Shown one piece after another: positions 3,291-61,838 of a stretch of DNA of 64,000 nucleotides. The translations under genes and the position numbers were made by a program. Numbering within the stretch: the first letter of the stretch is position 1; the number at the start of each line of letters is the position of its first letter. Source of the stretch: Dactylellina haptotyla (Eukaryota > Ascomycota > Orbiliomycetes > Orbiliales > Orbiliaceae); NCBI GenBank assembly GCA_031310005.1, contig JAQJAX010000011.1:185812-249811 (forward strand), given 5' to 3'. The notes beneath the pieces were generated by a model. The model was not told the origin of the DNA. It did not search any database and saw only the letters and a list, made by a program, of their open reading frames with translations.

Positions 3291-3295
3291 ATAAA

Positions 3296-3545
3296 TTAAT
3301 TGTACAATTTAAAAACTTAAAAAAAGAATAAACGTCACAAAATTTTGTGTTATAGAAGTTGCCAGGAATAATAATCTATTTAAAGCTAAAAAAATTGAAT
3401 ATAATAATATTAAACAGATTATCCTATTATAGGACAAAGATTTATCTTGTCTAGATGTTACAGCATTTATTAATAATAAAAAACAAGAAGATATTATAAT
3501 CATAAAAAAAAATATATAGATTTTAACCATTATTATTTCAATATT
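3296..3545 (-). pseudogene. Truncated copy of the nad2 5' end
   Basis: About 250 bp match 33905-34190, the start of nad2 with upstream sequence. The copy keeps [20 protein letters not shown] and SITQNFV but lacks about 43 bp in the middle, the part encoding [14 protein letters not shown]. It ends after about 75 codons. The intact nad2 elsewhere in the window makes this a duplicate fragment. Confidence 0.85.
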
Positions 3546-3898
3546 AAATTATAAATTTTTATATTTTTTTTATTAGCTACCACCAGATAAAGAATTAGCA
3601 ATATTATTTATTATATTTAATAAATATGGATCCTGATAGAAAAATTGTTTTTTTATTTATAAAAATATATAGTACATCTTATTGAGTTGCTAATGTTGTC
3701 ATACTTTGAAGTTATTTTTTAATACTTCGGCGTATTCTCTAGTAGCAATATTTAACATACATTTATTTTCATAATCTAATATCTCTACCTATTTCTATGA
3801 ATAACATGTTAAGCAAAGGATAAGTAGTAAAATAAATATAATTTGTTATATTATTTTTTTTTTTTAGTTTATTAATAGAAGATATAGATTGAAAATTT
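3546..3898. other. Spacer with decayed coding-like sequence
   Basis: This lies between the nad2 fragment and the cob stop codon. On the minus strand a few short protein-like strings (ATREYAEVLKNNFKV in one frame near 3720) are broken by stops. I cannot assign them. Confidence 0.3.
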
Positions 3899-22716: not shown

Positions 22717-23142
22717 ATGTAACCCGTGGAACCCTGTTCCGAAGTAGAAGCAAGAACCAAAAGAACCATCACTTAAAGTGAAAGAAGATACTGTATATTC
22801 TACACCTTGGCATATAGTAAAAACTACTGCTAACACAATTGTGAAGATTAAGCCATACAATACACCAGATCTATTTCCCTGTATTAGTGAATGATGTGCA
22901 TACGTTACTGTAATACCAGATGACAGTAAAATAACTGTATTTAATAAAGGAAGCTCAAAAGGGTTTATAGCAGAAATCCCGAGAGGTGGTCATTGAGCAC
23001 CTAGCTCAACTGTAGGTGATAATGCACTATGAAAGAAGGCTCAAAAGACACTTAAGAAAAATAATGCTTCAGATGTTATAAATAAAATAACACCTAAATT
23101 AAGGCCACGTTGAACTGCGCTAGTATGATCACCTAAATAAGT
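22717..23142 (-). CDS. cox3: Cytochrome c oxidase subunit 3, exon 2
   Basis: 142 codons encoding [20 protein letters not shown], the [20 protein letters not shown] segment, [25 protein letters not shown] and [20 protein letters not shown] to GTGFHGLH. This is the core of cox3, a membrane subunit of complex IV. It is preceded by G and joins exon 1 (EG) with the frame preserved. Confidence 0.95.
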
Positions 23143-32922: not shown

Positions 32923-34155
32923 AGGTGAATTTAGTTGATCTTTTAAATTATAATATGAATGATAATATCAAAAATAATATCCCATACTAAGTAATATAAA
33001 AAAAAAATTAAGATTGCTTAATGAATATTGCATTAAGTAAAATAAAAATGCTTGAATAGATTCTATAGTATTAATAGTTAAAGCTAATAGTATAAAACCT
33101 ACATGACTAATAGTACTGTAGGCAAATAATCTTTTTATTCTAGTTTGTACTAATCCTACTACTGTTCCTATTATTAATGATAAGAATGAACTAATTAATA
33201 AGATATCAGTTCAAGTAAATACAGTTTTTGCTCCACTAGCAAAATGTACTAAATCTAGCATAAATATAAAAATTGAAATCTTAGCCATAATAGCAACAAA
33301 AGTAGTTACTAAAGTAGGTAAAGAATCATATACGTCAGGAGATCAGAAATGGAATGGAGCTGAAGAAACTTTAAATAGATATCCTATTGATAATATAATA
33401 AGTGACAGATCAAAAGATTGAATAGGATTAATTTCACTAGCTTTTATCCATGTTTCTTTAACCTGGTATTCAGGTAAATTTATTATAGATTCTTGGGTTT
33501 GCGCTATCATTGTATCAGTTAAATGATATAATGTGTAAATTCCATCAAAATAAGTTAAACCTGTATTAACGTATAGTAAAGCTGATCCTAATAATATAAA
33601 ACAAGATGATAGTCCACCAAGTAAAAAATAAGTTAGAGCTGCACCTGTAGCCAATTCAGAGTTTCTATAAATAGAGGATAAAATATATAATCCATAACTT
33701 TGTAATTCTAAACATAAAAACATTGTTATTAAATCACAACAAGACATTAAAGACATTGCTCCTATTAATATAAATAATATAATTGTAGGAAAATCAATTA
33801 TACCTGATAAATCAATTATAGCGTATCTCTCACTTTTATTCATATTATTTAATTTTTGTTTTAAAGGTTCTTTTAAATATTTAAGATGTCTATTAAAAAA
33901 TGAAATTAATTGTACAATTAAAAAACTTAAAAAAAGAATAAACGCCACAAAATTTTGTGTTATAGAAGTTACTAGGAATAATCCTCCGTATACACCAATT
34001 CCTGTTCCTATGCATGTAATATGTAAACTATTTAAAGCTAAAAAAATTGAATATAATAATATTAAGGAGGTTATCCTATTATAGGACAAAGATTTATCTT
34101 GTCTAGATGTTACAGCATTTATTAATAATAAAAAACAAGAAGATATTATAATCAT
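32923..34155 (-). CDS. nad2: NADH dehydrogenase subunit 2, exon 1
   Basis: 411 codons of the complex I antiporter-like subunit: [76 protein letters not shown] and [20 protein letters not shown]. The FHFWSPDVY Trp is TGA. Exon ends AATTCACCT. An in-frame stretch upstream of the ATG is open for several codons without another ATG, so 34155 is the best start. A truncated copy of the 5' end lies at 3296-3545. Confidence 0.95.
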
Positions 34156-34189
34156 AAAAAAAATATATAGATTTCAACCATTATTATTT

Positions 34190-35072
34190 CAATATATTTA
34201 AATTAATTTAAATTTTTTATATATAAACATTTTTTTTTTAATATAACATAATAAAATTGCTTAAGTCTATTTTACAATTTAAATTAAAATTTAAACCAAT
34301 TATGTAAAAGATTAAAATAAAAACATAATTTTCCATGTAAATGCTTTATATTATAGTATATAATTTATATTATACCAATTTCATTATTTATATTTAGGTA
34401 GGCCACCTGTTAAACAAGCGAATCATTCGCTTTAAATTTTTTATTAATTTTTTATCGATTTATCCGAAGGTCTCATTTACCATCTACGGCCGTTATATAG
34501 CACACAAATATTTTTTTTTATAATAATATTATATTTACTAATTTTTAAATTTTTAGTTACACGCTTGTGTTACTATGTAACTGCAACACAATTTCGCATA
34601 CTTTACGTGCAAAACGTTAAGGTAATAAAAAATTTAAATATTGTAAGTTGCTTTCCTTTAAAAATTTAATTTTTAAAGTCGCTCAAAGGCTAGCATAGTC
34701 TAATGTTACAATCATTAAATGTATTTATATTATAGATAATAATCTTAATTTACGTTTTATTACGTCAAAATTATAAATCAGAAGGTTGTAAATGGCTTTT
34801 TTAATTGCATTGAAATTTACTCCTTTTTCTAACTTAAGATACCTAAAATAAAAAATTATAATTTTAAAGCAATAAGGACTATTATAGTTACTCTTTCGTA
34901 ATATTACAGCTGTGTTCTAAAAACATTACGTTACATTATATTAATTATTATAATGGACTAATTTTTTTTTATAAAATTAAAATATTATACGTTTTAAATT
35001 ACCAAAATAAAATTTATTGTGTGCTAAATTTATCTATAAATATATTTTATGTTTTATAATGTTTAATTATGT
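34190..35072. other. AT-rich spacer between atp6 and nad2
   Basis: No gene found. GC-richer patches around 34400 and 34480 (tacggccgt) do not fold into a recognisable tRNA. Confidence 0.5.
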
Positions 35073-37855: not shown

Positions 37856-38037
37856 TATCCGAAAATTAAATATTTCCAAATTTTTAAGAAAAATAATAAA
37901 TAAAAATAAAAAAAAATTAATTACTAATATTATCTAATATACATTATTAATAATTTTAATTTTTTTATTTTTATAATTTATGTTATAAAAATAAAATTTA
38001 AATTTTATAAAATTTATCTTTTATTCATATAATTTAT

Positions 38038-39816
38038 TCAATATTTTTCTTGTGTACGAATATTATTTATTATACTAGTTTTTAGTTCCTCATATTCTGA
38101 TAAATTTATTTCTCCATTTTTATATTTATCCTCTAATTTGTATAAAGCACGAAAATGTCTAACCATTTCTCTTTTATACGTATGTAATTTTCCATTGTAT
38201 TTATCATTATCAACATAAGCTCCAGACTCTAGAACCATTAATTTATTTCAATTTTTAATACTATCACCAAAAACAAGTTTAGCCATTTTTATAATTTTAT
38301 CCTTATCTGGATCTTTTATAGTTTCAAATATAGAATTTTCTTCGAATACCCTATTTAATTTAATTGCCTCATAATTTTCCCTTTCTTGACCAGTGTATGC
38401 CGGGATTCTTTCTATATTTTTTTTAAGAACCATTTCTTTAGGTACATTTTTATGTGTATTAGATGAGTCAATAACAGGAAAAGGAGGCTGTTCTTTACTA
38501 TATTGAATAGCAGATCATACTCCATTATCACTATTTGTTGGTAAAAATACATAACCTCCCTTAAAAATTTTTTTTTGATTATTTTCTAGGGTTTTATCAG
38601 GATATCTACCTTCTTTAAAATAATGTCAATTACCATCCCTATTATTAGGATCTAAAAGTGGACCAGAGAATTCAGGTTTTTCATTTACATAAGTACTAGC
38701 AAATACATCTTTAGTATCAGAGCCTTTAGGAAAATAAGCATAACCACCAGGAAAATAATCTTTTAATTTTAATTTTTTATTAAAATAATATCCTTTTTTA
38801 AAATATTTCCAACTACCTTCTTGATTAGACTCTACAATATTAGTTTGTTGAGAGTCAAATAATACGTCTGAAGATCTAGAAGCATCTCTTTGGGTATTAG
38901 AATTTACTTCCTGATGAGAGTTTTGTTTATTTGTACCTAAATTATTTTGAGATGAAGATGATATAGTATTTTCACTTTTATCTAATTCGTCGTCTGTATC
39001 GAATATTACATAACGTAATGATCGTTTAGATCTCGGTCTATTACGAGGTTCATAATTTTCTTCATTGGAAGATTCCTCCCCAGAATTTCCCATATAATTA
39101 ATAAATAATTTGGAATTTTTATTTAATTCTTTATTTCCATCAATACCTGTTAAACTTAATTTTTGATTAAAAATATAATTAATTATTTTTAATAAATTAA
39201 AAATAATATATTCTATCATATTATAAATATTAGGAAATAAAAGATATAATGATAAATTAAATGGCTTAGACTCAATTATATGAATTATTTTGTAAATAAA
39301 ATCATTAGAATAGGAAAAATATATTAATAAATAATTAAAATATGTGATTAATAAAGGAATAATTAAATTTTGTAAATAAAAAAAAATAATAACACTTAAA
39401 ATTATTTTAAATATTATATATAAATATTTTAATAATATATCTTTAAAATTATTATTTAATAGTTTTTTAGTATTTTTATATGAATTTTTATTACTTAATG
39501 TACTATACTTATAGCTTAGATTTGTTTTATATAAAAAATATCTGTTATTTAATATATTAGATGGTTTTATTAATGTATGATATGACTTTTTATTTGAAAT
39601 TAAAGAAGGTTTAGTTATATATTTTAATCAGTTGCTTGAAACTGGGTATATTCCTTTATTAATTCCATTTTTTATATCATCTAAGGTTAAGTGTTTATTT
39701 GCTTTCATCAATTCGGCCCTTTTACAAAAAGACTTTAAATATTCGCTTTTAGTTCCTAAATTAAGATAATTATTTAAAAACGGAATAATCTTATATAAAT
39801 CAGCAAATCTTGACAT
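38038..39816 (-). CDS. Unknown chimeric membrane ORF (592 aa)
   Basis: I do not recognise the main body. With UGA as Trp the frame is open for 592 codons. Residues 1-58 are the C-terminal piece of a LAGLIDADG enzyme (KANKHLTLDDIKNGINKG). Then come a polar stretch with PSLISNKKSYHTL, two or three hydrophobic segments (about residues 115-200, for example IIFKIILSVIIFFYL), an acidic/Arg-rich part (NEENYEPRNRPRSKRSLRY), a Ser/Asn-rich linker, and two tandem repeats at about 333-455 (SWKYFKKGYYFNKKLKLKDY and NWHYFKEGRYPDKTL, each followed by a GGYxxxP block). It ends with a charged region. The frame is also open upstream into a GIY-YIG fragment, so the true start is uncertain. Confidence 0.6.
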
Positions 39817-39849
39817 AAAATTAAGATTTAATATATTACTTTTGACTTT

Positions 39850-40063
39850 ACTAATAATAATATTATAGTAATAACTAAGTTTTATACCTAAATTTATACT
39901 ACTACCTACATACTTACTATTATCAAGATTATTTATTCATAAATAAATAGCTGATTTATTTTTATTCTCTTTTATAATATCCACTTTTTGAATGCCAGCC
40001 TTAGCATAAATTTTAATAGGGTTTATAATACTTGAACTAATACTATAAGAATAGTAGGAAGTA
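39850..40063 (-). pseudogene. GIY-YIG endonuclease fragment
   Basis: Minus strand, in frame with the following unknown ORF: AIYLWINNLDNSKYVGSSIN is the GIY-YIG opening motif, preceded by AGIQKVDIIKENKNKS. It resembles the GIY-YIG part of the hybrid enzyme at 50373-51240 (VIYRWINNLNGDSYIGSG). Only the first strand-helix part remains, and no catalytic Arg/Glu region is seen. It lies directly after the rps3 stop. Confidence 0.7.
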
Positions 40064-40069
40064 CAAGTT

Positions 40070-42829
40070 TTAACTTTTTGTTTTCCTCGCAAATGTATGA
40101 TAACCTTTTTTATTAGACAATAAAGAAGGATTAATATTAGAACTTATTTCTGTCTTTATTGCTACTTTACCTTTAATCATTATATTTTTTAATTCTTTAA
40201 TTCTATTAAGACCTTCTAATCTTAAGTGTTTTTTTGTTTTAACTATTTCTGCTGCTTTGCAAAAATCTACAAAATCTAATGCTTTTATTCCAATTACATC
40301 GTGCATTTGTGGTTTGGAAATAGTACTATAACCATAATAGCTAGTTCAAGCCTTTACTCCAAATGACCCTGTTTTTGCAACACCACTTACAAAACTGTAA
40401 TCTAAATTTGGACGTCAGTCACCTCTTATATTGGCAACCGAGATAAATTTATGTGAAGCATCAATATTTTTTAAACTTCCTTTGTAAGTCATTTTTTTTA
40501 TAGCACGAGAAGCAACATTACGTCTAGTTAATCTCCCAGCAGCTATTAATCTAATTCCAGAAATAAATTTATATTTAATTCGACTTAATAGTTCCAAGTA
40601 TTGATAATAATTTTTTGATTTTAAAGAAGATAATTCACGTAATGTATTTACACCCATAATATTAAATATATTCAACTTATCTAATTTATATCTACTATAA
40701 AGTACTAATTTAGCTTTAGTAAATATTTTTCTTTTAACTTTAAGAAGATTTTTCTTTTTAGTTACTAATTTTCTAGCTATATATTCTGCAAGCATATTAC
40801 TATTTAAATATATATATTTAAGTCGAATTAGATTAATTTCTAATTTTTTTTTAGAATACCTATTTAAATAATTAAGTAATCAAATTTTCAATTTATTAAT
40901 TCTAGAATCAAACTTATGTTTTTTAACAAAATATTTTGTTAAAAAAAGAAAAAATTCAAAATTTTTTTTTTTTATATAACCCATTATTATTTGGGTATTA
41001 GGATATAATCTATCTCTTCCTATTTGAGTAGATATTCCTAATTTTTCTAAATATATTTTTTTTAAATTATATTTAACTAAATAATTAAAACTTATAAGCA
41101 GAGAAACTTTACTTATTTGTGTATTAATATATGAAAAAAATTTAGTTACAGAAATTATTATAGGATCATTTAAAGCCTCTTTAATTTCTTCAGTTTTATA
41201 TGTTAATATTTCATTTATATTATTAATTAATTCAAAACACATATTATGTTTATTAATAAATTCAATATATTCTTTTATTTCTTTAATTTTTTCATTATTT
41301 CATTCTGTAATAGATTTTATCCATTTTTCTTTATAAATTATTTTTTTAATTAAATCTTTATTATTAATAAATTCAATAAATTCTTTTGTTTCATTAATTA
41401 TTTCATTATCTCTTTTTATAATTGGTTCAAATTTTTTTTCTATTCTTTTAATTATTCTTTTAATTTTACTTTTATTTTTTTTTATATTATTAAAATTTTT
41501 TTTTATTATAGTAAGAATATTATTAATTTTTTTTTCATTTCTTTCAATTAAATTTAAATCATCTTTTATTTTATTAATTATTTTAGTCATTTTTTCTTCT
41601 TTTTTTAATTCAAAAGAATTTTTATTTTTTGTTAATCAATTTATTATTCTTATTATCATAATACTAAATATTACCCGATTATTTATATAGAATTTAGGAT
41701 AATTCTTTATTATAACATTAACTCATTTACTTATGATTAATTTTAATTTTAATTTATCTATATCTAATCGTTTTAATTTTAACTTATATCTTAACATAAT
41801 AACTTTTATAATTATAGATATTGAATTTATTATATCATTATAATATAATAAACTTTTTTTGAATCAATCTACTTTTAAAGTATCAAAATTTGTTTTAAAA
41901 AATTGTAATTTATCTTTTTCTAAAATACCATCTAGTCAATAATTATTAATTTTAATTTTAAATAATAAATATTGAACTTCTCTCACATGATCCATTATTG
42001 ATTTAGAAGTATTCTTATCTATATGTTTAAGTAAATAATCCATATTAAAATATATTAATTTTTTTTTTTTATATTTTCTTTTAAAATAATTACTTACATT
42101 ATTTCCTTGCTCAGCAAAAAAATATAATGTTATTAAAATTTTAGAACTAGTATGTTTTAGGGTAGGAGAACTGATATAGATCTTACTTGTAATTAGACGT
42201 TTTTTAAGTTTATACATTTTTTTCTGAACAAACCCTGGAATAGCATAAAAATAGATTTTAATTCATTTTGTTAAAATTAAATGTAAATTTTTAACATCTC
42301 TCAATTCAAGCTTATCATAAGAATAAACAGATTGTGATCATTCTGTTACAGCAGCTGATTGATGTTTTGGTAATAATGATTTTTCATCTACTATACGATT
42401 ATTAGAAGGAATATAATTATTTTTATTAGAATAAATTTCAAAAATTTTACTGTTAGAATTAGCTTTTGTAGAATAAGATTTTTTATCTATTTTTTGTAAA
42501 AAAGATATTTTTTTAGTTTCAGTTATTTTAAATAAATTTAAGTTATTAGCATTTAATTCTAGATCTCTAACTCTAGTAAAATTAGATTTTTTATATTCAA
42601 TTTTTTTTAAGTTTAAATCAGTTAAATAAGCTTTATTAGGTTTATATAAATCATTAAAATTACATAAAGTTAATTTATTATCGTTATAATCTAAATTTTT
42701 ATTTTTTAAATAATAATTTGAAAAAAAATTTTTGTTTGAATTTTCAATATTGAAATTGCTAAAAGATAAGGTTGCAGCTTCAAATTGTTTATTATTTAAA
42801 CTTTTAACAAAGGAATTACTTATAATCAT
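40070..42829 (-). CDS. rps3: Ribosomal protein S3, fused to a LAGLIDADG C-terminal fragment
   Basis: 919 residues with UGA as Trp; far longer than most fungal mitochondrial S3. The Lys/Asn/Ile-rich N-terminal and middle parts are variable, as usual for this protein. The C-terminal S3 domain is clear from about residue 679: LVLYSRYKLDKLNIFNIMG, SGIRLIAAGRLTRRNVASRA, KGSLKNID and GSFGVKAW. After about residue 840 the frame continues into a HEG tail (DFVDFCKAAEIVKTKKHLRL and EGLNRIKELKNIM) and ends NPSLLSNKKGYHTFARKTKS. HEG insertion into the rps3 3' end is known in other fungi; here the HEG remnant extends the protein. Confidence 0.9.
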
Positions 42830-52489: not shown

Positions 52490-54661
52490 TTAAACAATTT
52501 TGTCTCATTTATTTTTAAATTGTATTCATTGGTTGAATTTATCTATTTTATTAACATTTAAATTACTATGATGTTCCAACATATAAAAATCTTTTATTAA
52601 ATTAATTTTTAAAGCTTTATTAGATTTTAAAGGAAAATCTTTAAAATAATAATCTACTAAATTTAATATTTCTTGTTTTCTAAAAATAGAATATTTAAAC
52701 GCATCTTTAGAACTAAGAATTTCAATTCTTCCTCCATATAAATTTTGTAACAGGTCTAATATATATTTATTCTTTTGGGTTATACTAATAGTTAATTGTC
52801 ATGATTTTTCATCTATATGAATAGATCCATCACTATCAATCAAACCACTAAATCAACCATTATTATAAACTAAACGTTGAGGTTCTATTAGCTGTACATT
52901 ATATTTTACATAGATTCTGTTTAGTTGAACCATTCTTATAGGATTTCTAATTAAACCATTAACATCACTAATTAGATTGATTAAACCTTTTGGATTTTGT
53001 AATTTATACTTTAATGCATTAGATCCTGCTATTTCCTTAATAAATCCTCCATATTTATGTTTTATTGAATATAATAAGGATTTATTGTTTATATGCTTTA
53101 CAATTTTTAAACTATCAAAACCTTTTTTAGTACTCTTAAATTCACCGTCTCCATCTATTAATCCTCCCAATCATTCAAAAAAGGATTTATTATTTAAAGG
53201 TTTAGATGAATAAAATCGTACATTACTACTAGGTTTTCACTTACAAGAAAAATTAATATAAGTTCTTTTTGTAATAGTTTGTTTAATGATTCCTTGTCCA
53301 TGTTGACCAGCTTTACTAAATAAAGGATTTAATTTGTTGGTATTATTGTGTAAAGGTCTTAATTGTTTAATTATTTTCATTTTTTGTCTTTTGACAAATG
53401 AATTAAAAAAATTATTATTATTACAAAGTGAAAAACTATAACAACATGAATTAATTACCCACAGATAAAATTTTTGTAATATTACTCCAAGATTAAATTT
53501 AGAATAACTTTTTTTTAAATTCTTGTTATCTATAATTCGGCAGGTAGAATAATATCTTTTATTAGTTTGTGAATTAATTACCTTTTTCAAACTACCTTTT
53601 TCAGGTATTACTAACATTTCTTCCTCAGGTATAAAAATTCTTCCTGTATTCATCCCAGATCTTATTTCTTCAATTTTTGTTAAGATTTCAGGTGTGATTA
53701 TACATTTATTATCTTCTCTTAATAAAAAAACTTTTTTTAAGTCGTTAAAATCATGAGATTTTAAGCCTTGAAGAGGATATTTATCAAAAAAAGGTATTAT
53801 TTTATTTTTAAAATCGTCTAAGGTTGTAACAAGATAATCTCCGTACATAGTAGTTCGAGGTCTAGGATAATATTTTCCACATCCTAAATAATCTACCAAA
53901 CTTTTTAATAAATCAGCATCACGTATATGTTGTGTCACTAATAATCTAAAACCAACAGAACCACCTTTTAACGATTTTTTAGTTACTAAGTAAAAGCAAC
54001 CTTCACCATTTACAAACCCGGATACTCAATTAGGATCCATAATTTTTGGATTCATAACTTGAGGTCTTATAGTTGCTATTATAGTAGGAAAAGCTGCCTT
54101 TAACTCATCAGATAAACCTTTATTTAATGCAGCTTTAATTGAAACTATTTTATTTAAACCTTCTAAAGTTAAATGTTCTTTACGTTTCATTAAATCTATA
54201 ACTTCTTTAAATAATAAGTAATCTGCAAATTTCTGAGATATCAGAGGATAATTATCAAAATGATCAATAATAACTTTTAAATCTTTTAAAGAACCAACTC
54301 AATATTGAATACTATCAGATCCTCTATTTGTGACTGTACCAACTTCAAAAAAATTTCTAAGATTAGTAACTAATGCTTTGTCTTTTATATGTAAAGCTAT
54401 TTTAAAAACCAATTCTATTGAATACCCTATTTTCATTTTTAAATTAGGACGAATATTAATTAAAAAACAACCTTCAGCATCAGTAAAACCAGTAACAAAT
54501 CAAGGATTTAATTTATTCATATTTTGTTTAGTTGCTTCAATATAATTGCTAGCAAATTCTGAATTATTTTTATTATTAGTTGTTAAACTACGAGTGAATA
54601 TTAACTGTTTATAATAATTTGAATTAATAAAATTATTATTGCCATAAAGAAAATTAAGCAT
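52490..54661 (-). CDS. Double homing endonuclease with four LAGLIDADG motifs (723 aa)
   Basis: A single frame with UGA as Trp. Residues about 50-350 form one two-motif enzyme (NPWFVTGFTDAEGCFLINI and NPNWVSGFVNGEGCFYLV, with HLTLEGLNKIVSIKAALN). A linker of about 110 residues rich in Lys/Asn and with a hydrophobic patch follows. Residues about 480-723 form a second two-motif enzyme of another subfamily (WLGGLIDGDGEFKS and WFSGLIDSDGSIHI, with NGLIRNPIRMVQLNRI). All four acids are present. The second enzyme resembles the adjacent 294-residue HEG. Start is an ATG at 54661. Confidence 0.85.
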
Positions 54662-54772: not shown

Positions 54773-54973
<201 letters not shown>

Positions 54974-55244
54974 TTATATTATATCATATTTAATTTATTT
55001 AAATTAATTCAAAATACCTAAGTTTTTAAATTATCTAGTTTAATAATAATTTAACAAAATTATAAAATAATGAAAATAGTTAAATGATAAAAAATTAAAT
55101 ATAATGCTTATTATTATAATTTTATATTAATAAATATAGACAATAATAATAAACCTATGTATATTGATAGTATTAATTTGCTAGTTATTATTAGGAATAT
55201 TTATTAAAACATGTTTAATTTTTATTATATAGAATATAAATTAT

Positions 55245-55781
55245 TTAATTTTTTATTGGCGGAAACACTAAAAAAAAAACATCTTGATATTTACCCACTA
55301 GATGTTTATTTATATATGGTTGAGAATCATGTAGTTTATAAAAGTCTAATTTTTTTTTTAAAATACTATCTTGTGATTCTTGTACAAGAATATTATTAAG
55401 TTTAATTGGATTAGCATCTGGCCCATATTTAGCAAAAAATACATTTTTACTCATTCTGGTTTTAAGTAAATCTTGCCCATCTACAACAATAGATGGGGAA
55501 GATTTATAATCTGAATTCTTAGGCGGAAACACTTTATAAAAAATATCCTTATATCTATCTACTTCAAGTTTATCAACATTTAGTTGAAAACCACGTAATT
55601 GATAAAAGTCTAATTTTTTTTTTATAATATTATCTTGTGATTCTTGTACAAGAATATTATAAAGTCTAAATATATCAGCATCTGGCCCATATTTAGCAAA
55701 AAATACATTAAAACTCATATTATTTGTTTTAGGCCATGGCTGGTGTTGATCTACAACAGTAGAAGGGTAAGGTTTATAGTC
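55245..55781 (-). repeat. Two tandem coding repeats of about 268 bp
   Basis: Units at 55512-55781 and 55245-55511 encode the two C-terminal repeats of the unknown ORF. They are diverged but collinear and in frame, so the duplication is not very recent. Confidence 0.8.
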
Positions 55782-57272
55782 TAAAAAATTTCGACCTTCA
55801 GGATGCATTTGAAATATATTCATATAACTTAAATCATAGTATTTACTAGTTATTCCTATCATTAAAACACTTTTTAAATCGTAATGTGGGTTTTCTATAT
55901 GAAAAAGATATGGAAATCATACACCCATTTCAGGTTTATGTTTTAAATTAAATATACTTTCATTAAGCACACAATACTTATTCAATACATTTTTATAAAA
56001 TATAATATTAAAAGCTAATTCTTCTATAGAATTGGTATATTCTATATTATATAATTTGCAGTGTCAGTTATAATAATCTAAAAATGGATAATACATTTCC
56101 TTAGCTTGATTATAAAATATATTAGAATCTATATAAAATTCCTTTTTACTTACATCAAATGTAGGATAGTATTTATCATGTAATTTACAAAAGACAAAAT
56201 GTTTAATTAAAATACTAATACCTACTATTAATATATTATCATATAGTTCATGACGTAAAGGAATTTCCTTTAAATAATTTTCAACATAATAATTGTAATC
56301 ATTAGTAAATTTATTATTCTTTATAATATTGTATTTGACTTGCTGACTTTTTCAAATTTTGAAATTATATTTATTTATATTATCCCTATAGTTAATTTGA
56401 TCATCTTTTAAAAATTTTTCTTTAAATAAAAATTCCTCACATGATATAAGAGAATTAAAATGCCTTATATCGTATAATATATCATGAGAGAAATTTTCGA
56501 AAAATTTAAATTTTAAAGGTAATCCTTTATCAAAATTGGAGATTATTATAATATTTTGAAATAAACCTATTTCGTAATTTTCTTTCAGTATAATATTTTT
56601 TTCATCTATTAGTTCAGATTTTTCGATATGTTTTAGATTGCTATTATGTGCATCTATTAATATGCTAATAAAAGAATCCATTTTATCAGATAATGTAAAC
56701 CAAATCATATTACGAGGACGTGGCTCTTCATTTATATCAATAAATGCAGAACCATAAAGATTAGGGTCTGAGTTACCTCCGCCCCCTGGTACCTTATGAC
56801 GCCCTAAATCTAAATTTTTTAAAGTCTCATATAATGCATTAAATATGTGACTAGAATTATTTAAATCAATTTTTGAAGTTTTTATACTTCAATCATTTAA
56901 TATATAATTGGTAATAAAAATAAGCATTGTATTATCTAAATTTAACGTAATAAATATAGTCAAAATATTTCAAAATTGAATAATAAAAAATAATTTAAAT
57001 AAAGATATTTTTTTATTTTTTGATTTAATAAAACCAAAAATTATTCATATATATAATATTGTATATATAATATTAATTTCTAAATTTAAAAATTGAAAAA
57101 TAAAGATAGGAATAGAAACAATAATTTTAAATATAAAACTATTAATAATTAATTTTTTTGGTTTAATTCAATTTAAATAAATATTTATAATATAGGTTAT
57201 AATAAAAGCATATAATGAATATAAATTTTCAGGAAACTTAATTATATTTTTTTTATTTTTTAATGTCTTCAT
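55245..57272 (-). CDS. Unknown membrane ORF with C-terminal repeats (675 aa)
   Basis: I do not recognise this protein. UGA as Trp keeps it open. Residues 1-165 hold four or five hydrophobic segments (for example LYSLYAFIITYIINIYLNW and LFKLFFIIQFWNILTIFITL). A Gly-rich turn (GRHKVPGGGGNSDP) and INEEPRPRNMIWFTLSDKMD follow, then a large polar region. Residues 498-587 and 588-675 are two tandem repeats sharing NVFFAKYGPDA, NILVQESQD and KKKLDFY, ending VFPP. It lies in a cox1 group I intron where a HEG is normally found. No nuclease or polymerase motif is visible. A membrane location is inferred. Confidence 0.65.
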
Positions 57273-58123
57273 TAAAAAAAAAAATATATGTGGACTATTT
57301 TTTTATATAAATATTTAATGATATTAAAAATTGTTTAATAAAATATAGATTTTAGTCAATTAATGTCTTTTTATAATAAAGATATAAAATTTGGCCGGCA
57401 ATCTACTATTATAATTTTTTTTTAGATAAATTTTAAATAATAAATTATATTTTATAACATCAATAATACGATATTATGAAAAAATCATATGTTGATTTAA
57501 ATTTATATAAAAAGTTAATTCTAAATAATTATCATCGTATGAGTATTAGGATAAATTGGATCAAATATAAAAAGACTAAATAAAACTGAATTATATAATT
57601 TAAAACTTTTTTTTTTATCTCTTAAATACAAAAAAAATTTATTATTAATTGAAAAAATTTATACTAAAAATTTTAATATAAATATAATATATGGACTTAT
57701 TTTTTTATAAATATTTTAATTATATATTAAATAAATTATAAAATTTTATTCCCGTAATAATTAAATTTTTTCAAAAACAAAGGATAATTTTTATTAAAAA
57801 TTATACTCATATTTAATATATTAATTTAATGTATCGGTAAATGTTACCACTACTTATTTTTTTTTAATAAGTTTACAGTCATAAAAATAACTGATCATTA
57901 TAGTGAAAAAAAAATAATAAATTATTAATTCTTCACTCCTATTGACTGGCAAAAAATTAATATAAATTTAATAATAAAAAAATTTTTATTTATACCTAGC
58001 GTGTAGTCTCTGAGATTTAGGTGTATATTTACCTATTACCTGCAGATTGTTATAAATTATTAAAATATTATAATTTATAATATCCCTGCATATAGCTAGC
58101 ATAACTTTGGCCTTCCTTTGTTA

Positions 58124-58228
58124 ACCAAAGAATCAAAACAGATGCTGGAATAAAATTGGATCCCCACCACCAGCAGTTTCGAAAAAAGATGTATTGAAAT
58201 TTCTATCAGTTAAAACCATTGTAATTCC
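58124..58228 (-). CDS. cox1: Cytochrome c oxidase subunit 1, internal exon
   Basis: 35 codons: [20 protein letters not shown] then [15 protein letters not shown]. Conserved cox1 helix V/VI region. Preceded by G, ends GGT. The first residue is Gly where Ala is usual (AITMLLTDRNF), which depends on the splice point. Confidence 0.95.
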
Positions 58229-59411
58229 CTATACTTAATCTACGAGACTACGTCCCATGACTTTTTCGTCAGCTGCTAAGCAGCTGACGACAATGTCTTA
58301 AAAATAATATTATTATTTAGAGTAGATATTCATTAACTCACATTAATGGTGGGATTATATCTTACTTATCTAAGCTATAGAAATTATTAAGATGGTCTCA
58401 AACAAAAATTGTTCTTTTATCATTCATATTTGATTTAATTTTTATAACTTTTTCTATATTGAATTTATGATCCATTTTTCCAGATTTAAATAAATTAACA
58501 ACTTCTATTCAGCATTTATAATCTAAATATTTACTACCAAATAAAGGGTAATTGTTTAAATAAGATTCTAAATTCAAGTTACCTTTTAAGCTTGTTGTTC
58601 TAACTCTATATTCAGGATTAGGTTTATCTACCCTGATAGGCTTTACAACAGTAGATAAAAATTCAGCTATATTTTCTAAAAAATATAAATTATTTTTTCC
58701 ATTATAATCAATTTGTCTTTGTGAAAGCTCAAATTTACATTCTATTCTTGTAGATTTATCATTTTTAGTTGTTCTAACTGAAAAATGCCCATCCGCTTCA
58801 ATAAATCCTGATAATCAAGAATCACTCGTTAAATTGCTAGTGTTTAAAGGTTTTTTTTCTAAATTAAGATTTGAATCTTTAATATTATATCAATCAATTA
58901 ATTTTCATAAAGCATAAATTTTTGGTGTTCTCATATAACCATTAATTAAAGATAATAACAATAATAATCCTAATTTATTATTAACTGTAAGGATATAAGC
59001 ATTTACTCCTTTTTTCCTTGTAAGAGATCCATGACCTAGATTTTTTTGAATTAATAGAGCTAAAGGTAAATCTTTTAAATGAAAAACAATTTGTATAGAA
59101 GGGTAATTAATAACACCTTTTGGGGATCTTTCTGATTTAGGTACAATGATTGTTCCATCACCTTCAATTAACCCCGCCAAATATGAACTAAATTTATTTT
59201 TTTCAATTTGAGTCTGAGAAATTGTACTATACAATTTTGTATCCTTACAATTTTTTATAATAAAAATATAGCAAATAAGCTCTGACGTATAATCTCTGAG
59301 GATTCATAAAAAGTCCAAACTTTCTATGTTTCCTGCTGATTGTGTAAAATAGATATTTAACAGTTCCCAGCTTATAGTCAAATTTAAAACCGGCAGAATT
59401 AAATAGGTTTT
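58229..59411 (-). other. cox1 intron (VLAG|ITMV site), group I
   Basis: Core after the upstream exon: taatctctgagg at about 59290 pairs with gggattata at about 58350, a G-C to A-T covariant P7. The ctgctgattg and cccagcttatag tracts lie between the core and exon. The HEG ends just before the distal P7 strand. Confidence 0.83.
58362..59234 (-). CDS. LAGLIDADG homing endonuclease (290 aa)
   Basis: Starts MYSTISQTQIEKNKFSSYLA. Motif 1 is YLAGLIEGDGTIIVPKS and motif 2 WLSGFIEADGHFSVRTT, both with acids. LINGYMRTPKIYALWKLIDW between them and the C-terminal MNDKRTIFVWDHLNNFYSL are typical of the yeast aI4/aI5-type subfamily as I recall it. Intact with UGA as Trp. Confidence 0.9.
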
Positions 59412-61064: not shown

Positions 61065-61838
61065 AAACTAAAACTATCGTTACATTCAATATATCACTAT
61101 ATTGTTCGGACTATAATTTTATCTTTTATATAACAAAACCTATTAGTAAAAAATTGATGGATGTAACATATACATTGTATTATTTACTATTATTAAAAAT
61201 CATTTTCACTTTAATTTAAAAATTAAACTATCTACCAATAATAATCTAAGATGTGCAAGCTCATTATTAATTACAAGATTAGAATTATTAGGATCAATAG
61301 TCCTTAATATATTAAATAAAGTGTTATATTCACTTTCTAAATAATCTAGCCTATTTAATAAATTATCGTATAAAATATCATGCTCTACCATTAAGTTTCG
61401 CAAACCAATAATATCTTGACGAGAATAAATTAAATTATGATTAACTGAATATTCCGCAGCCATTTCTCTATTATGAGTTATGAAAGTACGATGAAGTTCA
61501 ATTATTTCATTTGTTAAATCATTTAATCTATTCTCCAATAAAGATACAATAACATAAAAAAAAAAATAATATAAAAATAATATTTGGAAGAGATGGAATA
61601 GGTAAAATAGGTAAATTTCCATGTAATATTAAATATTTATAACGATTAGGCTTAGAATCTTTATGGGAAAAATAATATTTATTAGGTTTTTCTAATATAT
61701 AATATGAAATTAGTGATAAAACAAAATAAGTTAAAATCCAAATAAGTTTTATGTAAACCGAATAACATTATGTTGGCTTTAAATAAACTCAATATATCAC
61801 TATATTTATAGGGCTATAACTTTATATATATATTATAA
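61065..61838. repeat. Direct repeats flanking an inserted ORF
   Basis: tcaatatatcactatatt followed shortly by g(g/c)ctataactttat-like sequence occurs at about 61068-61130 and 61780-61838. The repeat includes a ribozyme P7 strand. It flanks the unknown frame and could be a target duplication or the result of recombination. Confidence 0.65.
61206..61622 (-). CDS. Unknown coiled-coil ORF (138 aa)
   Basis: MEIYLFYLFHLFQILFLYYF is a hydrophobic N-terminus; the rest is helical and charged (LLENRLNDLTNEIIELHRTF, LLNRLDYLESEYNTLFNILR). Not recognised. Upstream, another frame reads WILTYFVLSLISYYILEKPN then PSLPNIIFILFF and runs into the same T-run at about 61556-61566. A one-base shift there would make a longer membrane-anchored protein, so the visible ATG may not be the original start. 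Confidence 0.5.
   Translation of the reverse strand: MEIYLFYLFHLFQILFLYYFFFYVIVSLLENRLNDLTNEIIELHRTFITHNREMAAEYSVNHNLIYSRQDIIGLRNLMVEHDILYDNLLNRLDYLESEYNTLFNILRTIDPNNSNLVINNELAHLRLLLVDSLIFKLK

What the first reader, a model, noticed from the sequence alone, without database searches (positions are those of the whole stretch)
55245..57272. Group I intron of cox1 carrying a 675-residue non-HEG membrane protein with tandem repeats
The intron has no recognisable endonuclease. Instead it encodes a protein with several N-terminal membrane segments, a large polar region and two 89-residue C-terminal repeats sharing NVFFAKYGPDA and NILVQESQD. The long open frame in such AT-rich DNA argues for selection. 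The cargo could be a passenger gene spread by the intron.
Basis: partly seen in the sequence, partly recalled or inferred. Interest (0 to 1): 0.75.

Follow-up and report, generated by a model that had tools for sequence, protein, structure and literature searches.

The report
Orphan membrane-protein frame in mitochondrial intron
Inside one self-splicing intron of a fungal mitochondrial gene sits a long open frame for an unknown membrane-type protein instead of the usual DNA-cutting enzyme; it looks like a passenger gene of a sort already known from mushroom mitochondria, and what it does is not shown.

Summary
The window is fungal mitochondrial DNA (TGA = Trp). On the minus strand cox1 is split between WFFG and HPEV by a 3,156-nt intron (58123-54968). 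It looks group I: U before the 5' splice site, G at the 3' end, P1/P3/P4/P5/P6 in the fold, and an R/S pair for P7. An ATG-started frame of 675 codons (57272-55245) begins 19 nt after the S motif, in the P9 region. It has no endonuclease domain and no credible relative in the libraries and collections searched. It shows N-terminal hydrophobic stretches, a polar middle, and two C-terminal repeats (53 of 85 aligned residues identical). The frame is not chance: 685 open codons against at most 151 in 1,000 simulated introns, with strong codon-position bias. The repeats show no clear purifying selection (dN/dS about 0.87). In three relatives the site is uninterrupted. Best reading: an orphan 'ncORF/uORF'-type membrane protein, an exchangeable, perhaps plasmid-derived class known from Agaricomycete mtDNA, riding passively in an intron whose own endonuclease was lost. 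'Passenger' is plausible; 'spread by the intron' is not shown. Function and expression are unknown.

The parts
58124..58225 (-). cox1 exon [34 protein letters not shown]; its 3' end CUUUGGU forms P1
   Evidence: tblastn of a recalled generic COX1, P1 in fold
54968..58123 (-). group I-type intron, 3,156 nt, begins UAAC, ends in G
   Evidence: exon mapping, boundary letters, fold and R/S motifs
57985..58135 (-). 5' part of the intron core with the last exon bases: P1, P3, P4, P5, P6
   Evidence: minimum-free-energy fold, z = -3.0; helix names assigned by hand
58004..58013 (-). R motif TCAGAGACTA (5' strand of P7)
57292..57298 (-). S motif ATAGTCC (3' strand of P7)
57300..57985 (-). AT-rich filling between R and S (P8); longest stop-to-stop frame on the transcribed strand 45 codons; possible eroded insert
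   Evidence: no significant endonuclease remnant (best E 0.29)
55245..57272 (-). ORF675: orphan protein, hydrophobic N-terminus, polar middle, two C-terminal repeats
56910..57152 (-). hydrophobic N-terminal stretches (aa 41-121)
   Evidence: hydropathy; helices in a low-confidence model
55521..55781 (-). C-terminal repeat 1 (aa 498-584)
55257..55511 (-). C-terminal repeat 2 (aa 588-672)
54875..54967 (-). cox1 exon [31 protein letters not shown]

Best explanation
A group I intron at the WFFG|HPEV site of cox1 carries an orphan gene for a membrane-anchored mitochondrial protein, of the exchangeable ncORF/uORF class seen in mushroom mtDNA and perhaps once part of a mitochondrial plasmid. Shown: intron anatomy, the long coding-like frame, absence of a recognisable endonuclease domain, hydrophobic N-terminus, C-terminal repeats. 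Inferred: the ORF was inserted by recombination into the P9 region, outside the catalytic core, so splicing is not harmed. It would be translated from precursor or excised intron RNA and inserted into the inner membrane by its N-terminus. It persists as a passive passenger because the intron removes it from cox1 mRNA. The intron's own endonuclease was lost, possibly leaving the 0.7-kb AT-rich filling of P8.
For: Intron: P1/P3/P4/P5/P6 fold, z -3.0. For P7, all 10 GACTA-type R-like motifs on the minus strand have ATAGTCC as the nearer downstream S, and 3 of 4 GATTA-type have ATAATCC, a covariation across this genome. Coding: 685 open codons against at most 151 by chance; GC by codon position 31/20/12%, 0 of 2,000 simulations as skewed. 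No endonuclease or other accepted domain. Positive control: two endonuclease ORFs of the window find relatives in the six fetched fungal mitochondrial contigs (the GIY-YIG one 68% identical in L002), ORF675 none. Precedent: five of six large ncORFs of H. irregulare have transmembrane regions, and putative plasmid genes occur in introns of T. cingulata and A. bisporus (passages of PMC4201751); of 20 intergenic ORFs in five Heterobasidion species nearly all, three excepted, have transmembrane regions (section 11 of PMC10234125).
Against: No plasmid hallmark found: no dpo/rpo domain in 13 of the 31 window ORFs of 120 aa or more that were scanned, and no long inverted repeats round the ORF. No significant endonuclease remnant in P8. 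Expression is untested. The repeats' dN/dS near 0.87 gives no clear sign of constraint. No Rfam group I match.
Confidence: 0.6

Rival explanations
1. A fully diverged endonuclease or maturase of a new fold that moves or splices its own intron.
For: It sits downstream of S, as does the GIY-YIG ORF 51122-50373 of another cox1 intron. A weak match of the C-terminus to UvsY, a phage recombination mediator (E 0.0022, below its cut-off).
Against: No nuclease or reverse-transcriptase match. The UvsY match is near noise level: the reversed sequence gives E 0.0082 to another family (1 of 9 control sequences below 0.01), and PHROGs shows no UvsY. Membrane segments are unusual for a nuclease (general knowledge).
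Confidence: 0.08
2. A functional, selected mitochondrial membrane protein with a host or intron-helping role; the intron is its stable home, as for intron-borne RPS3.
For: Intact 675-codon frame with coding periodicity. Introns encoding RPS3, N-acetyltransferases and aminotransferases are known (passages of PMC7902536 and PMC8393795). Three of 33 ncORF products of a rust mitochondrion were found by proteomics (passages of PMC7951889).
Against: No relative seen in the collections searched. No clear purifying signal between the repeats: 8 nonsynonymous, 0 synonymous changes in the 36-codon core; the 22-codon head alone has dN 0.35, dS 0.72.
Confidence: 0.17
3. A recently acquired but already functionless frame (dead plasmid or ncORF DNA not yet decayed), as argued for the LV-uORF of Fusarium oxysporum.
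For: dN/dS near 1 between repeats. The authors of PMC5604515 conclude that the LV-uORF is not a functional gene in that complex, while citing an earlier study that saw purifying selection (passages). ncORFs of T. cingulata and G. lucidum are doubted or unexpressed (passages of PMC4201751).
Against: No stop in 675 codons. About 91-95% of neutral simulations of the repeat divergence alone gain a stop.
Confidence: 0.15

Closest known systems
ncORFs/uORFs of Agaricomycete mtDNA (Heterobasidion; passages of PMC4201751 and PMC10234125, section 11 of the latter)
   Same: Long orphan frames without domain match, transmembrane regions, patchy occurrence
   Different: Those described are intergenic, some near plasmid genes; this one is inside a group I intron of cox1
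Putative plasmid genes inside introns of Trametes cingulata and Agaricus bisporus (one sentence in PMC4201751)
   Same: Non-endonuclease cargo in a mitochondrial intron
   Different: Those were called by similarity to plasmid genes; ORF675 has no such match in what could be searched here
Intron-borne RPS3, N-acetyltransferase and aminotransferase genes of fungi (passages of PMC7902536, PMC8393795)
   Same: Non-endonuclease ORF carried by an organellar intron
   Different: Those have recognisable domains; this is an orphan membrane-type protein
Yeast cox1 aI4-alpha / I-SceII intron and the angiosperm cox1 intron (site identity recalled, from no call)
   Same: By recall, the same insertion site TTTGATTCTTTGGT|CAY
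   Different: Those carry an endonuclease ORF (for the angiosperm intron: passages of PMC3192709); here none is recognisable

Membership tests
Group I intron | U before the 5' splice site, G at the 3' end, P1 with an internal guide | tested here: met
   ...CUUUGGU|UAAC, GGCCAAAG guide...AAUAAG|CAU
Group I intron | P3-P6 core | tested here: met
   fold of 151 nt, z -3.0, 0 of 200 shuffles as stable; helices named by hand
Group I intron | P7 from R and S motifs | tested here: met
   R 58013-58004, S 57298-57292, covarying R/S pairs elsewhere
Group I intron | match to the Rfam model | tested here: not met
   no group I match at gathering score or E up to 5; I attribute this to the long insertions that split the core
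Group I intron | self-splicing | not testable with these tools
   needs RNA
Homing endonuclease gene | LAGLIDADG, GIY-YIG or other nuclease domain | tested here: not met
   neighbours do match
Agaricomycete ncORF/uORF | ATG-started frame of at least 420 bp without similarity to characterised proteins | tested here: met
   675 codons; no accepted match in the libraries searched; NCBI nr not searchable here
Agaricomycete ncORF/uORF | transmembrane regions (frequent, not required) | tested here: met
   hydropathy
Agaricomycete ncORF/uORF | intergenic location (as in the Heterobasidion cases) | tested here: not met
   inside a cox1 intron
Mitochondrial linear plasmid gene | similarity to plasmid ORFs, dpo or rpo | tested here: inconclusive
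   no Pfam match; the plasmid collection searched is PLSDB (no match), not a fungal mitochondrial plasmid set
Mitochondrial linear plasmid gene | terminal inverted repeats | tested here: not met
   only AT-rich arms of at most 50 nt, 70-81% complementary, among the 25 of 77 pairs shown

The most novel reading that the evidence does not exclude
ORF675 founds a family of intron-borne, membrane-anchored mitochondrial proteins with a selected role, for example tethering or stabilising intron RNA at the inner membrane; the unrelated ORF159 in another cox1 intron of the same genome would be a second, independent case of a membrane-segment ORF standing where an endonuclease is expected.
Probability: 0.1. 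Interest if true: 0.65.

Novelty: new member of a known kind. Interest (0 to 1): 0.33.

Why it matters
If the protein is made and selected, group I introns would be shown to carry membrane-protein cargo as well as endonucleases, ribosomal protein S3 and a few enzymes, and the open question whether fungal mitochondrial ncORFs are real genes would gain a testable case. If it is a passive passenger, it adds one more case of exchangeable orphan DNA lodging in introns.

Tried and rejected
UvsY-like C-terminus: Pfam E 0.0022, below cut-off. Rejected after controls (1 reversed and 8 shuffled sequences: the reversed one gives E 0.0082 to another family). PHROGs gave only weak other matches, E 0.034-0.39; a two-repeat profile found no UvsY in the PDB (that a UvsY structure exists is recalled). 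The UvsY family was not found in the six fetched contigs, and rings below its cut-off in 3 of 14 control genomes.

Homology of ORF675 with ORF692 (38014-40092) or rps3: BLAST without composition correction gave E 3e-5 and 0.001, but shuffled sequences do as well often enough (31 of 300 for the N-terminus against ORF692 and 125 of 300 against rps3; 69 of 1,000 for the linker). Rejected.

Duplicate S motif near 57700: alignment score reached by 35 of 1,000 simulations; not claimed. Endonuclease remnants in the P8 filling: best tblastn hits of window ORFs E 0.29 and 0.56; not claimed.

Structure: AlphaFold without a useful alignment gave pLDDT 31 for the whole protein and 47 for the repeat; no fold search was made on such models.

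Search for other introns at the same site in viral contigs: one search found none; one search found 6 loci (L007-L012), which I judge chance matches, as none shows an S motif or the HPEV exon downstream in the stretch held (one has an R-like match). Arg-codon bias (CGN 6 of 11) is not significant (P 0.07-0.08). The Heterobasidion GC palindrome is not among the recurrent GC-rich 13-mers of the window (none occurs more than twice), so the window was not assigned to that genus.

Full report
Setting. The window is AT-rich (about 13-29% GC per kb), uses TGA as Trp, and holds fungal mitochondrial genes: rps3 (Pfam VAR1, 52.6 bits), COX1 and COX3 pieces, and many LAGLIDADG and GIY-YIG ORFs. That it is a basidiomycete is my inference from these genes and from recall; no call names the organism, and no whole genome is held.

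Observation. cox1 runs on the minus strand. Between WFFG (58124) and HPEV (54967) lies a 3,156-nt intron that holds ORF675 at 57272-55245.

Intron type. The exon end CUUUGGU pairs with GGCCAAAG, which starts at intron nt 12 (P1). The same fold of 151 nt gives hairpins that I assign by hand to P3, P4, P5 and P6; it is 3 standard deviations more stable than shuffles, 0 of 200 as stable. The R motif TCAGAGACTA and S motif ATAGTCC pair as P7. One search lists 14 R-like motifs on the minus strand. Ten have GACTA, and the nearer of the two S types downstream of each is ATAGTCC, 37-53 nt away in seven and 249, 714 and 883 nt in three. Four have GATTA; for three the nearer is ATAATCC, at 62, 69 and 940 nt, and one has none. 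Two of 12 minus-strand ATAGTCC sites have no R of their own. Not every R/S pair was checked to lie in an intron. The covariation supports P7. In the ORF675 intron the R-S distance is 714 nt, and the longest stop-to-stop frame on the transcribed strand of the filling is 45 codons. No Rfam group I match was found, which I attribute to the insertions that split the core.

Place of the ORF. The ATG follows the S motif after 19 nt, so the ORF is in the P9 region. The GIY-YIG ORF 51122-50373 also lies downstream of its S (51264), whereas the LAGLIDADG ORF ending at 58362 and ORF159 lie between R and S.

Is it a gene? The longest open stretch is 685 codons; 1,000 order-2 simulated introns reached at most 151. 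GC at codon positions is 31/20/12%; GC1-GC3 = 0.19 is reached by 0 of 2,000 simulations. The five other frames contain 28-78 stops each. Against this, codon-usage correlation with five core-gene ORFs is not discriminating (0.82 in frame, 0.86 in one reverse frame). The two C-terminal repeats differ at 52 nucleotides over 85 codons with dN 0.23 and dS 0.27; by part, the 22-codon head has dN 0.35 and dS 0.72, the 36-codon core 8 nonsynonymous and 0 synonymous changes, the tail dN 0.35 and dS 0.38. Neutral simulations give a similar pN/pS (observed 0.89; medians 0.81 and 1.19 under two mutation settings), but 91-95% of them gain a stop. So the frame has stayed open, while amino-acid constraint is not clearly visible.

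What is it? hmmscan found nothing for ORF675 in Pfam or NCBIfam at E up to 1 and one weak unknown PHROG at 0.18. Pieces gave UvsY at 0.0022 and DUF7216 at 0.11 and weak PHROGs at 0.034-0.39; UvsY was rejected by controls. PADLOC gave none for ORF675, the PDB only E 0.079 and above, and phages and PLSDB plasmids none. Viral contigs and genome contigs gave no relative with the full protein or the repeat alignment. Structure prediction was not usable (pLDDT 31 and 47). These collections are mainly prokaryotic or viral, so absence from them says little about other fungi.

Comparison with relatives. A cox1 exon found six fungal-mitochondrion-like contigs in IMG/VR. In three (L001-L003) the WFFG-HPEV site could be read and is uninterrupted; they carry an intron a few codons upstream, after QHLF, whose ORF shows LAGLIDADG motifs by eye. 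In the other three I did not read the site. Two window endonuclease ORFs find good relatives there (GIY-YIG 68% identical over 423 positions in L002; LAGLIDADG 39-48% in the six best rows); a third was queried in a wrong frame by mistake. ORF675 finds none in the six, nor does ORF159 (nor in viral contigs).

Literature. [quoted passage not shown] cingulata and A. bisporus' are reported; the authors suggest a plasmid link for ncORFs, and also note that ncORFs of T. cingulata were doubted and one of G. lucidum was not expressed (passages of PMC4201751). In five Heterobasidion species nearly all of 20 intergenic ORFs, three excepted, have transmembrane regions, and 14 of 20 have relatives among mitochondrial or plasmid ORFs (section 11 of PMC10234125). 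In a rust, three of 33 ncORFs were seen by proteomics (passages of PMC7951889). 35.51% of fungal uORFs lack known domains (passages of PMC8672057). Introns may encode RPS3, N-acetyltransferases or aminotransferases (passages of PMC7902536 and PMC8393795). The large Fusarium LV-uORF is argued to be non-functional in F. oxysporum, against an earlier report of purifying selection (passages of PMC5604515). Nine paper searches (only listings seen beyond the papers named) did not bring up this ORF.

Conclusion. The most economical account is an orphan, membrane-type ncORF lodged in the P9 region of a cox1 group I intron in which no intact endonuclease was found. It is a new member of a known kind in an uncommon place. 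Whether it is expressed, selected or spread by the intron is open.

Noticed in passing
61143-61622 (-): A second non-endonuclease ORF (159 aa, one N-terminal membrane segment) in another cox1 intron, between its R (61997) and S (61114) motifs; GC1-GC3 0.16, no Pfam match; weak PADLOC REase_II at E 0.017.
   Followed up: partly
38014-40092 (-): 692-aa ORF overlapping the end of rps3: its start resembles ORFs of the fetched contigs (37-55% over 42-66 aa, endonuclease-like by eye), then membrane segments and two degenerate repeats (GSWKYFKKG / GNWHYFKEG); no accepted Pfam domain.
   Followed up: partly
40070-42829 (-): rps3 with a C-terminal tail similar to a stretch of L004 where a LAGLIDADG relative also matches (62% over 42 aa).
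   Followed up: no
52490-54661 (-): One 723-aa intron ORF holding three LAGLIDADG_1 stretches and a LAGLIDADG_3 match, apparently two endonuclease genes fused.
   Followed up: no
3293-3573 and 33903-34224: Near-identical copies (95-97% in two blocks, 81% in a third) of a stretch at the 5' end of what I read as nad2, one displaced near cob; partial nad2 copies are also described in Heterobasidion.
   Followed up: no
16150 and 17530 (-): Two similar stretches, VVWLFLYVSLYYWGS and SVWLFLYVSVYYWGS, probably two copies of the 3' end of cox3, by eye.
   Followed up: no
22778-23140 (+): 120-aa plus-strand ORF without Pfam match at E up to 0.01.
   Followed up: no
57285-58000 (-): The AT-rich P8 filling folds into a row of hairpins (z -1.73, 2 of 20 shuffles as stable); may be an eroded insert.
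   Followed up: partly
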